Source: Poseidonibacter lekithochrous (lineage in GTDB: Bacteria > Campylobacterota > Campylobacteria > Campylobacterales > Arcobacteraceae). From it: a DNA stretch of 64,000 nucleotides. Shown in pieces: positions 42,420-45,821 of this stretch. The translations under genes and the position numbers were made by a program. The stretch covers positions 868,001-932,000 of the forward strand of contig NZ_CP054052.1 of the NCBI RefSeq assembly GCF_013283835.1, in the 5' to 3' direction. Every line of letters starts with the position of its first letter. The stretch's first letter is position 1. The notes beneath the pieces were generated by a model. That model saw nothing but the letters and a program-made list of their open reading frames with translations. It was not told where the DNA came from and did no database searches.

Positions 42420-43421
42420 ATGATAAAAAGAGAATTCTTTCAAAAACACAAAAGTTTAGATTTTAAGTTCTATCAAAATGTAGATGATTTTGTGGTTGAA
42501 GAAGTGCCTATTAAATTCACAGGCAAAGGTAATTTTATAATTGCCAAAATTAAAAAAGAAAGATTAGGTACTTGGGACTTAATGGAAGCTCTAAGCAAAG
42601 GGCTTAAAATATATGAAAATGAGTTAGGATATGCAGGTCTTAAAGATAAAAATGCAACAACAACTCAATATATTTCAATTCCAAGAAAGTATGCAAAAGA
42701 TCTAAAAAACTTTAGACATCCAAGAATCAAAATATTAGAAACAACTCTACATAAAGAGAAGTTAAATATTGGAGATTTAATTGGTAATAAATTTGAGATT
42801 AACTTACATGAAGTAAAACAAGAAGATGTAGGTAAAATCGAAAAATATATAAACCAAGTTGCTAAAAAAGGAATGCTTAACTATTTTGGATACCAAAGAT
42901 TTGGACATGATGGAGCAGAAAACTTAGAAAAAGCAAAAAAATATATCTACGGTGATTTAACAATAAAAGATAGAAAATTATCAAAAATGTTAGTTGCTGC
43001 TTATCAAAGTGATTTCTTTAATAAATGGTTAGTTGAAAGACTAAACATGAGTGATGAGTCATTTGAAGCTTTAGATGGAGATGTATTTAGAGTTTATGAA
43101 ACAGATAGATTTTTCACTCCTAAAAACTTAACAGAAGCTATGGAAAAAGATTTTAAAGCTAAAAAAATTGTTCCAAGTGGATTATTACCTGGTAGAAAAG
43201 CATTTAGAGCTATTGGAAAAGCTAAAGAGATTGAAGAAAAGTATGATGATACATATATTCAAGAAAAAGGTTATAGAAGAGATGCTCTTGTATATCCAAC
43301 TAATATTAATATCAAATACAATAAAGAAACACAAAAATGTAAAGTAAGATTTACACTACCAAAAGGTTCATACGCAACTGTTTTAATAGAAAACATTGCA
43401 AATAGAAACCTAAAAGCTTAA
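42420..43421 (+). CDS. truD: tRNA pseudouridine(13) synthase TruD
   Basis: A 333-residue enzyme that makes pseudouridine at tRNA position 13. The catalytic Asp is D76 in G-Y-A-G-L-K-D-K-N-A-T-T, and N-Y-F-G-Y-Q-R-F-G is the second family signature. Length is normal for the shorter Campylobacterota form. The stop codon is inside a shared terminator with the thioredoxin-like gene. Confidence 0.95.
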   Translation: MIKREFFQKHKSLDFKFYQNVDDFVVEEVPIKFTGKGNFIIAKIKKERLGTWDLMEALSKGLKIYENELGYAGLKDKNATTTQYISIPRKYAKDLKNFRHPRIKILETTLHKEKLNIGDLIGNKFEINLHEVKQEDVGKIEKYINQVAKKGMLNYFGYQRFGHDGAENLEKAKKYIYGDLTIKDRKLSKMLVAAYQSDFFNKWLVERLNMSDESFEALDGDVFRVYETDRFFTPKNLTEAMEKDFKAKKIVPSGLLPGRKAFRAIGKAKEIEEKYDDTYIQEKGYRRDALVYPTNINIKYNKETQKCKVRFTLPKGSYATVLIENIANRNLKA

Positions 43422-43448
43422 ATAAAAGAGATTATCTCTTTTATTTAA
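43418..43448. terminator. Bidirectional terminator, truD / thioredoxin-like gene
   Basis: A perfect 14-bp stem (43418-43431 with 43435-43448) has a TTA loop. It holds the TAA of truD and the stop of the minus-strand gene. Confidence 0.8.
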
Positions 43449-43803
43449 AATACTTATTCACACTATTTGTTAATTGCTCAACAGTTTTGATTCCTCGCTC
43501 TTTTGCAAGAACTTCACCATTTTTAATATAAACTAACATTGGCACTGCGAAGGCTTTATACTTTTGAGTAAGAGCAGGTTCTTTCTCAATATCCACTTTA
43601 TAGATTTCTACATTGTCTGGTTTGCTTGTATTATATTTTGTCATGTTCCGCTCTAGAACCTTACAAGACCCTCACCATACTGCGTAAAAATCAATGATTA
43701 CATTTTTGTTTGCTATTTTTTGGTCGAAATTATCTGCAGTTAATTCTTCAAATGCAAATAATGAACTAAACCCAAGAAATAAAAACAGAACTAGTTTTTT
43801 CAT
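43441..43803 (-). CDS. Thioredoxin-like selenoprotein candidate (in-frame TGA as Sec44)
   Basis: An ORF of 120 residues if TGA at 43672-43674 is read through. AAAGGA precedes the ATG at 43803. A signal peptide (1-17, F-L-G-F-S-S-L-F-A) is followed by a thioredoxin fold: I-I-D-F-Y-A-V-W then TGA, then G-S-C-K (C47), with cis-Pro loop F-A-V-P-M. The TGA sits where the first active-site Cys of W-C-G-x-C-K belongs. A hairpin follows 12-19 bases later. Codons remain in frame on both sides with no other stop. A nonsense mutation is the alternative. The paralogue at 43865 has Cys there. sel genes are not in the window. Confidence 0.75.
43638..43666 (-). promoter_or_regulatory. Candidate bacterial SECIS element
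   Basis: Downstream of the TGA on the minus strand, TTGT-AAG-GTTC, loop TAGAGCG and GAAC-ATG-ACAA form a hairpin with two paired sections. The apical loop begins about 16 bases after the TGA and, if the U-G pair closes, has G at position 2, as bacterial SECIS elements require. Confidence 0.55.
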
Positions 43804-43864
43804 CTTTGATCCTTTTTTTGTATAATATAAAAACTTTGTTTAGTTTTTGTAAATACAAAAAAAA

Positions 43865-44227
43865 CTATTGAAAATATTTGTTAAAACTATCTTCAATTTG
43901 TTCTGTTGTTTTTATTGCATCTTCTCTAGCTATCTCTTTTCCGTCTTTAAAATAAATAAATAATGGGATAGTAATTGCATCATATTTTTTAGTCAAATAA
44001 ACTTCTTCACCTATATCAACTTTGTATATTGATAAATTAAGATCTTTATCTATTTTTGATTTGGATAAGTTATTAGATGTTTCTTTACAGATATCACACC
44101 AAGTGGCATAAAATTTTACTACTGTATTTCCTTTTTTTATTTTTTCATCAAAATTGTTTTCATTTAGATGTTCAAATGCAAATATATTACTTATAAGAAG
44201 TAGAGAAATAAAAATAGTTTTAAACAT
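43865..44227 (-). CDS. Exported thioredoxin-like protein (W-C-D-I-C-K)
   Basis: A 120-residue thioredoxin fold protein. The ATG at 44227 has AAAGGA 5 bases upstream; a longer in-frame start at 44245 has none. The signal peptide (1-16) is F-I-S-L-L-L-I-S-N-I-F-A. Active site F-Y-A-T-W-C-D-I-C-K and cis-Pro T-I-P-L-F. It is a close paralogue of the selenoprotein candidate just downstream, with the same length and C-terminus (N-K-Y-F). It is likely a periplasmic disulfide reductase or isomerase. Confidence 0.88.
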   Translation of the reverse strand: MFKTIFISLLLISNIFAFEHLNENNFDEKIKKGNTVVKFYATWCDICKETSNNLSKSKIDKDLNLSIYKVDIGEEVYLTKKYDAITIPLFIYFKDGKEIAREDAIKTTEQIEDSFNKYFQ

Positions 44228-44366: not shown

Positions 44367-45821
44367 ATGAAATTAAAAGAATTAGAATTAAATGTAGATT
44401 ATTTTGAATTTAATGAAAAACTATATCAAAAACTAGATGCAACACCACTATCAAAACCTAAATTAATATCTTTCAATAAACAAGCCTGTGATTTAATCAA
44501 TCTTGATTATGAAGAGTGTGAAAGTGAAGAGTTTATTGACTTCATCAATGGAAGTAATGTTTTAAAAGGCTCAGTTCCATATTCAATGGTGTATGCAGGA
44601 CATCAGTTTGGTTACTTTGTACCACAATTAGGCGATGGAAGAGCTATTAACCTAGGAGCTGTAAATGGTTGGCATTTACAAACAAAAGGTTCAGGTATTA
44701 CAAATTATTCAAGAAGAGGGGATGGAAGAGCAGTTCTTAGATCTTCTATTCGAGAGTATATAATGGGTGAAGCAATGCACGCTTTAGGAGTTCCAACTAC
44801 AAGAGCTTTAGCTATTATTGATTCAGATACTTTTGCCCATAGAGAGTGGGAACAAGAATCATGTTCAATAGTTATGAGAATGTCTCCTTCTTGGATAAGA
44901 ATTGGAACATTTGAGTTTTTTGCAAATACGGATAATTCAAAAGAGAATCTTTCACAACTAGCAGATTATGTAATCAAAAATACATATCCACACCTAGAAA
45001 ATGAAAATAATAAATATGAAAAGATGTTTTACGCTCTTGTAGATAACAGTGCAGAACTATTAGCAAAATGGCAAACATATGGATTTATGCATGGGGTTAT
45101 GAATACAGATAACTTCTCAATGGCAGGTCTTACTATTGATTATGGCCCCTTTGCATTTATGGATTATTTTGATAAAAACTGTATTTGTAATCATACAGAT
45201 AGTGAAGGGCGATACTCTTATAATAATCAACCTTATGTAGCTAGATGGAACTTAATGGTTTTAGCACAAGCTTTAAGTGAAATAGCAAATTTAGAAAAAA
45301 TGCAAGATTATCTTCATGCCTTTTTACCACAACATGAAAATGTATATTTGCAAATGATGAATAAAAGAATAGGGCTTAATCCAAAGAATAGTGGTAATAA
45401 TAATCTTGATTTAATTGTTGAATTATTAGGTGCTCTACAAAGTGCTCAAATGGATTACAACGTATTCTTCCATAGATTAACAAACTTAGAATCTTTTGAT
45501 GATATTTCAAGTATTACAGATATTGCTGTATTTAGACAAAGTATTGAAGACTGGTTTGAGTCTTATAAAAAAGTATGTGAAAAAGATGGAAGTACTTTTG
45601 AAGATAGAAGAGTAATTATGAAAAAAATAAATCCAAAATATATAATCAAAAATTACATGTTACAAGATGCTATTGAATTAGCACATGAGGGAGATTATAC
45701 TTTGGTAAATGATTTATTGAATATTGCGCAAAATCCTTTTGATGAACATGAAGCTTTTGAAAAATACGCACAACCTACACCAATGGAGTATGCTAACACA
45801 CAACTTTCTTGTTCTTCTTAA
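44367..45821 (+). CDS. selO: Protein adenylyltransferase SelO (YdiU/UPF0061)
   Basis: A 484-residue pseudokinase-fold enzyme that transfers AMP to Ser, Thr or Tyr of target proteins, linked in other bacteria to oxidative stress and redox proteins. The ATG at 44367 was chosen; a longer in-frame ORF from 44154 is AT-rich, Cys/Ile-rich and overlaps the divergent gene. Signatures: Y-A-G-H-Q-F-G, L-Q-T-K-G-S-G-x-T-x-Y-S-R, M-H-G-V-M-N-T-D-N and D-Y-G-P-F-A-F-M. The tail ends S-C-S-S, so the residue that is Sec in animals is Cys here. It is divergent from two thioredoxin-like genes. GAGA is a weak ribosome site. Confidence 0.95.
   Translation: MKLKELELNVDYFEFNEKLYQKLDATPLSKPKLISFNKQACDLINLDYEECESEEFIDFINGSNVLKGSVPYSMVYAGHQFGYFVPQLGDGRAINLGAVNGWHLQTKGSGITNYSRRGDGRAVLRSSIREYIMGEAMHALGVPTTRALAIIDSDTFAHREWEQESCSIVMRMSPSWIRIGTFEFFANTDNSKENLSQLADYVIKNTYPHLENENNKYEKMFYALVDNSAELLAKWQTYGFMHGVMNTDNFSMAGLTIDYGPFAFMDYFDKNCICNHTDSEGRYSYNNQPYVARWNLMVLAQALSEIANLEKMQDYLHAFLPQHENVYLQMMNKRIGLNPKNSGNNNLDLIVELLGALQSAQMDYNVFFHRLTNLESFDDISSITDIAVFRQSIEDWFESYKKVCEKDGSTFEDRRVIMKKINPKYIIKNYMLQDAIELAHEGDYTLVNDLLNIAQNPFDEHEAFEKYAQPTPMEYANTQLSCSS

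What the first reader, a model, noticed from the sequence alone, without database searches (positions are those of the whole stretch)
43441..43803. Thioredoxin-like gene with TGA at the catalytic Cys: a probable hidden selenoprotein
Seen: one in-frame TGA (43672-43674, minus) splits an otherwise intact signal-peptide plus thioredoxin ORF at the first Cys of W-x-G-S-C-K. The start has a good ribosome site and C-terminal codons continue in frame to the cis-Pro and beyond. Known: selenocysteine replaces exactly such Cys in redox proteins. Inference: W-Sec-G-S-C-K. The odds of a random nonsense mutation landing on that codon and leaving the rest intact are low.
Basis: partly seen in the sequence, partly recalled or inferred. 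Interest (0 to 1): 0.9.

Follow-up and report, generated by a model that had tools for sequence, protein, structure and literature searches.

The report
Exported thioredoxin using selenocysteine
This split-looking gene in a marine Arcobacter-type bacterium is almost certainly intact: its internal UGA "stop" is read as selenocysteine at the catalytic position of a small, probably exported thioredoxin, a new member of a known kind of selenium protein.

Summary
Minus-strand ORF 43803-43441 encodes a 120-aa thioredoxin with a signal-peptide-like start. Its only internal stop is TGA (43674-43672), at the first catalytic residue. The same closed genome carries selA, selB, tRNA-Sec and selD (itself UGA-containing).

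In Arcobacteraceae relatives, 22 homologous loci have TGA at exactly this codon and 29 have TGT/TGC; none examined has TAA or TAG. After the UGA, Sec forms share a hairpin with compensatory base changes and a G in the loop (a bacterial SECIS). Cys forms lack it, except one recent Sec-to-Cys convert. Protein sequence after the UGA is under purifying selection.

The genome also has a second Sec paralogue, a Cys paralogue in a rhodanese-trx-dsbD cluster, and a diverged tandem Cys copy. In two related genomes the Sec form itself occupies the dsbD cluster, pointing to DsbD as electron donor (inference). Ten of 22 Sec loci, from three genus groups, lie beside SelO.

Sec-thioredoxins (UxxC) are already a known selenoprotein kind, so this is a new member with a distinctive genomic context. 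There is no protein-level proof.

The parts
43441..43803 (-). Sec-thioredoxin gene, 120 codons plus TAA; signal-peptide-like segment in residues 1-17 (MKKLVLFLFLGFSSLFA)
43672..43674 (-). UGA codon 44, read as selenocysteine (W-U-G-S-C-K)
43638..43666 (-). SECIS-like hairpin; upper stem GUUCU/GGAAC (43655-43659 with 43645-43649), loop AGAGC with G (43650-43654)
43804..43819 (-). ribosome-binding site (AAAAAAAGGATCAAAG) directly upstream of the ATG
43865..44224 (-). tandem, strongly diverged Cys paralogue (WCDICK), directly upstream on the same strand
44367..45821 (+). SelO/YdiU-family protein adenylyltransferase (Cys form, ends ...LSCSS), divergent; recurrent neighbour of the Sec form in three genus groups
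42420..43421 (+). gene convergent with the Sec-thioredoxin (TruD-like by eye, not profile-tested); same neighbour in six other same-genus genomes

Best explanation
The locus encodes a full-length, probably exported thioredoxin-fold oxidoreductase. SelB and Sec-tRNA, directed by a hairpin just after the codon, insert selenocysteine at UGA-44 to give W-Sec-G-S-C-K. Sec acts as the attacking nucleophile and Cys47 as the resolving thiol, forming and breaking a selenenylsulfide. Inferred: it works in the periplasm as a disulfide, sulfenate or peroxide reductant recharged by the membrane reductase DsbD, as a paralogue of the Cys (CPPC) thioredoxin of the rhodanese-trx-dsbD cluster. Shown computationally: frame, UGA conservation, Sec machinery, hairpin covariation, Cys homologues, gene neighbours. 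Not shown: actual Sec insertion, export, DsbD as donor, substrate. The confidence given is for the selenoprotein claim; for the DsbD-fed periplasmic role it is about 0.6.
For: Single internal TGA at the catalytic codon in an otherwise intact ORF. Complete Sec trait in the same closed genome: selB 298 bits over cut-off 242, selA 563 bits, selD 347 bits with an in-frame TGA giving AAGUAAK, tRNA-Sec with anticodon TCA. 22 loci with TGA and 29 with TGT/TGC at the aligned codon, none with TAA or TAG. On 19 distinct Sec sequences the hairpin is 91.9% paired with 18 cells of double compensatory change, 0 of 500 shuffles as high; slid structures reach 63% at most; 25 Cys sequences give 70.2%, no better than shuffles. 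RNAalifold finds the same 5-bp upper stem unprompted. dN/dS after the UGA is 0.08-0.36 among five close Sec orthologues. AlphaFold gives a confident thioredoxin fold, pLDDT over 90 for the domain, nearest to solved thioredoxins at 1.2-1.4 angstrom rmsd. The Cys paralogue of this genome is followed by DsbD (529 bits against 330), the same cluster recurs in nearly all CPPC homologues, and in G057 and G023 the Sec form itself stands before dsbD.
Against: No protein-level evidence. Lone-sequence folding of the hairpin is not unusual (z -0.93), so the RNA case rests on covariation. In that test two measures (number of pairs with a double change, further pair types) did not exceed the shuffles. SelB presence does not separate Sec from Cys-only genomes significantly (19/20 against 31/37, Fisher p 0.40); one TGA genome, G007, shows no SelB but is 86% complete. 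Export was judged from the sequence, not with a signal-peptide predictor. In this genome the Sec gene lies away from dsbD, so the donor is inferred from paralogues.
Confidence: 0.95

Rival explanations
1. Pseudogene: a recent nonsense mutation or sequencing error turned Cys into a stop, and the downstream frame is a remnant.
For: Only one base separates TGA from TGT/TGC; Cys paralogues exist in the same genome.
Against: TGA is kept at this codon in 22 loci across several genera, protein after it is under purifying selection, the UGA is followed by a covarying hairpin absent from Cys forms, and the genome has the Sec-decoding genes.
Confidence: 0.02
2. UGA is read through by another amino acid (near-cognate suppression) rather than Sec, or serves as a regulated stop.
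For: Read-through of UGA is known in general (own knowledge).
Against: The genome has a dedicated tRNA-Sec and SelB; the position aligns with the catalytic Cys; a SECIS-type hairpin at the right distance is conserved.
Confidence: 0.02
3. It is a selenoprotein, but its main partner is not DsbD; its physiology is tied to the neighbouring SelO AMPylase and oxidative stress.
For: 10 of 22 Sec loci, in three genus groups (g1, g3, g19), lie beside SelO, while no dsbD-cluster Cys locus does. SelO AMPylates glutaredoxin in a redox response and is itself controlled by a disulfide (PMC8097203).
Against: SelO should be cytosolic while this thioredoxin has a signal-peptide-like start, so direct contact is unlikely; SelO was not found beside the other 12 Sec loci within the flanks held; G057 and G023 place the Sec form in the dsbD cluster.
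Confidence: 0.15

Closest known systems
Sec-containing thioredoxin (Trx, PF00085, UxxC; listed as experimentally verified in PMC13188914; recorded in Treponema denticola, Geobacter, Anaeromyxobacter, Carboxydothermus in PMC1794560)
   Same: Thioredoxin domain with Sec replacing the N-terminal catalytic Cys of WCxxC.
   Different: This one has a signal-peptide-like N-terminus, belongs to a family found here only in Arcobacteraceae, and is linked to dsbD or SelO. Sequences of the listed examples were not compared here.
The single annotated Sec thioredoxin reported in Epsilonproteobacteria (PMC4607533)
   Same: Same phylum, same kind of protein, same sort of 5/6-bp SECIS hairpin with an invariant loop G.
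   Different: Its species and sequence could not be compared (supplementary tables not readable), so it may or may not be this family.
Cys (CPPC) thioredoxin of the rhodanese-trx-dsbD cluster in Arcobacteraceae
   Same: Paralogue, same length and signal-peptide-like start, about 45-58% identity; present in this genome at G000:C1:3360290-3360646.
   Different: Cys codon, no SECIS hairpin, CPPC instead of U-x-x-C.
Rhodanese/DsbD fusion-like selenoprotein TsoB (NF045694) and thiol:disulfide interchange selenoproteins
   Same: Sec proteins with thioredoxin-fold or DsbD-like parts.
   Different: Far below the TsoB cut-off (27 against 805 bits); different architecture.

Membership tests
Selenoprotein (bacterial) | In-frame UGA in an otherwise intact, selected ORF | tested here: met
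Selenoprotein (bacterial) | Host genome has SelA, SelB, SelD and tRNA-Sec | tested here: met
Selenoprotein (bacterial) | SECIS hairpin downstream of UGA, G in apical loop, supported by covariation | tested here: met
   absent from Cys forms
Selenoprotein (bacterial) | Homologues with Cys at the UGA position | tested here: met
   29 Cys homologues
Selenoprotein (bacterial) | Sec present in the isolated protein | not testable with these tools
   needs mass spectrometry or 75Se labelling
Sec-thioredoxin (PF00085, UxxC) | Thioredoxin domain over the gathering score | tested here: met
   77.4 bits against 23.5; fold
Sec-thioredoxin (PF00085, UxxC) | U-x-x-C at the WCxxC site and a proline at the cis-Pro position | tested here: met
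   W-U-G-S-C and invariant P88
Classical thioredoxin equivalog (TIGR01068) | Score over NCBI's equivalog cut-off | tested here: not met
   83.0 bits against 96.8
Exported (periplasmic) protein | Cleavable signal peptide | tested here: inconclusive
   hydrophobic MKK...SLFA start conserved in the family and low-confidence in the model; no signal-peptide predictor was run
DsbD-dependent thiol reductant | Genetic linkage to dsbD | tested here: inconclusive
   met for the Cys paralogues and for Sec forms of G057 and G023, not for the window gene itself

The most novel reading that the evidence does not exclude
An Arcobacteraceae-specific periplasmic selenium redox relay: a DsbD-fed thioredoxin was duplicated, took up selenocysteine, and was repeatedly kept beside SelO, so that exported Sec chemistry and SelO-type AMPylation form one linked oxidative-stress module.
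Probability: 0.12. Interest if true: 0.65.

Novelty: new member of a known kind. Interest (0 to 1): 0.4.

Why it matters
Plain ORF calling keeps only a 67-aa fragment of this gene, so a conserved selenoprotein family of marine Arcobacteraceae may be going unrecorded. The family offers a clean natural series (Sec forms, Cys paralogues, and a fresh Sec-to-Cys convert that still carries its SECIS) for asking why selenium is kept in a probably exported redox protein.

Tried and rejected
Lone-sequence folding of the hairpin: not significant; replaced by covariation. SelB co-occurrence as a statistical test: not significant, because SelB is common in the family (p 0.40). A TGA-bearing hit outside the family (G258) was checked and is an artefact: the TGA lies upstream of its ATG and its active site is WCNPC. 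A weak third SECIS-model hit in the genome (18.9 bits, E 4.4) lies in an intact ORF without TGA and was dismissed. Papers on Arcobacter or Poseidonibacter selenoproteins: none describing this family found. Pseudogene and generic read-through were considered and rejected for the reasons under the rivals.

Full report
Observation. The minus-strand frame 43803-43441 was read directly. It is 120 codons from ATG to TAA, with one internal stop, TGA at 43674-43672, codon 44. Read through, the protein begins MKKLVLFLFLGFSSLFAFEELTADNFDQKIANKNVIIDFYAVW-U-GSCKVLERNM and continues past AVPM to the natural end. It matches the Pfam thioredoxin domain across the TGA at 77 bits.

Machinery. The window lies in a closed 3.57-Mb genome. 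That genome holds selB (298 bits, cut-off 242), selA (563 bits) and selD (347 bits), clustered around a tRNA-Sec at 1351318-1351412 with anticodon TCA, which Rfam's model (47.3 bits, gathering score 47) and ARAGORN both recognise. selD has its own in-frame UGA (AAGUAAK), so the genome codes for at least one other selenoprotein.

Who it is. The window's organism is therefore inferred to be a Poseidonibacter (Arcobacteraceae, Campylobacterota).

Homologues. A search of 150 relatives and extraction of the best loci gave 51 family members: 22 with TGA and 29 with TGT or TGC at the aligned catalytic codon. None has TAA or TAG there. The motifs vary around the Sec (WUGSC, WUPSC, WUYAC, WUGAC, WUFAC, WUPAC, YUPAC, GUSAC, TUGAC), so the UGA is kept while its neighbours change. 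On a maximum-likelihood tree the Sec/Cys label needs four changes against about 17 for shuffled labels. Two Cys forms sit in Sec groups: G001 (WCPSC) and G003b (GCSAC), which look like Sec-to-Cys conversions. A wider sample of 249 genomes of the phylum gave no Sec form outside this family; the one flagged hit was an artefact.

SECIS. After the UGA the Sec forms share a hairpin: a 5-bp upper stem starting 13 nt after the codon, a 5-nt loop with an invariant G at its second position, and a lower extension. In the window gene the upper part is GUUCU-AGAGC-GGAAC. On 19 distinct Sec sequences 91.9% of pair cells are standard, 18 cells have changes on both sides, and the covariation score exceeds all 500 shuffles; slid structures reach at most 63% paired. 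Three stem pairs switch between types with both sides changed (GC/AU, UA/CG, UA/CG). Two of the five measures, the number of pairs with a double change and the number of further pair types, did not exceed the shuffles. RNAalifold finds the same upper stem unprompted. In 25 Cys forms the same columns behave no better than shuffles. G001, the recent Cys convert, was left out of both sets and keeps the hairpin letter for letter, a fossil SECIS. The window sequence alone folds unremarkably. A model built from the Sec forms hits only the two Sec paralogues convincingly in the whole genome; both were in its training set, so this is a check for extra copies and not independent evidence. The anatomy agrees with the epsilonproteobacterial SECIS described in PMC4607533: a 5/6-bp hairpin a few nucleotides after TGA with an invariant loop G.

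Selection. Among five close Sec orthologues, dN/dS downstream of the UGA is 0.08-0.36, as expected for translated protein and not for a dead tail.

Neighbours and mechanism. The CPPC Cys paralogues lie in a conserved cluster: divergent rhodanese, thioredoxin, dsbD. The window's genome has one too, at 3360290 (DsbD 529 bits against 330). In G057 and G023 (one genus group; G057 is an Arcobacter MAG, NORP36) the Sec form itself occupies the place before dsbD. This is the best clue that the family is reduced by DsbD in the periplasm. The window gene instead lies next to SelO, with a diverged tandem Cys paralogue between them. SelO adjacency recurs in 10 of 22 Sec loci from three genus groups (g1, g3, g19), plus the Cys convert G001, and in none of the dsbD-cluster Cys loci. 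SelO is a redox-linked AMPylase that modifies glutaredoxin (PMC8097203), but it should be cytosolic, so only a regulatory link is suggested. AlphaFold gives a confident thioredoxin fold with a low-confidence N-terminal stretch, closest to solved thioredoxins. The proposed chemistry (Sec attacks, Cys47 resolves) follows from established thioredoxin mechanism, not from a test here.

Comparison. Sec-thioredoxins with UxxC are a listed, experimentally verified selenoprotein kind (PMC13188914; PMC1794560), and one thioredoxin was already noted in Epsilonproteobacteria (PMC4607533). The window gene meets every defining feature of that kind that could be tested. It falls below NCBI's classical thioredoxin equivalog cut-off (83 against 96.8 bits), in keeping with a separate subfamily. 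What is new here is the Arcobacteraceae family, its signal-peptide-like start, two Sec paralogues in one genome, and the dsbD and SelO contexts; no paper found describes them.

Limits. No wet evidence. Signal peptide judged by eye. SelB co-occurrence is consistent but not statistically informative (19/20 against 31/37, p 0.40), and one TGA genome, 86% complete, shows no SelB. The DsbD donor and any SelO link are inferences. Flanks held per locus were 1.5-3 kb, so more distant neighbours were not counted.

Noticed in passing
43865-44224 (-): Tandem Cys paralogue (WCDICK) between the Sec-thioredoxin and SelO, on a very long branch (1.27) and not seen next to the Sec gene in the other genomes: a fast-evolving lineage-specific duplicate.
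   Followed up: partly
L064 (G000:C1:1638324-1638680): Second Sec paralogue in the same genome, motif I-G-U-S-A-C, with the same SECIS hairpin; its relative in G003 is Cys and has lost the hairpin.
   Followed up: yes
L012 (G001, Poseidonibacter lekithochrous A1R12), 1501-1878: Cys form (TGT) that keeps the Sec-type hairpin letter for letter: a fresh Sec-to-Cys conversion with a fossil SECIS.
   Followed up: partly
44367-45821 (+), and L010, L016, L058, L063, L066: SelO (AMPylase family) is a recurrent neighbour of the Sec-thioredoxin in three genus groups, never of the dsbD-cluster Cys paralogue.
   Followed up: partly
L018, L021, L073: Sec form sits directly before dsbD, in the place held by the Cys paralogue elsewhere: apparent Sec-for-Cys replacement in the rhodanese-trx-dsbD cluster.
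   Followed up: partly
L048 (G000:C1:1352543-1353463): selD of this genome is itself a selenoprotein gene (AAGUAAK), which plain gene calling would truncate.
   Followed up: partly
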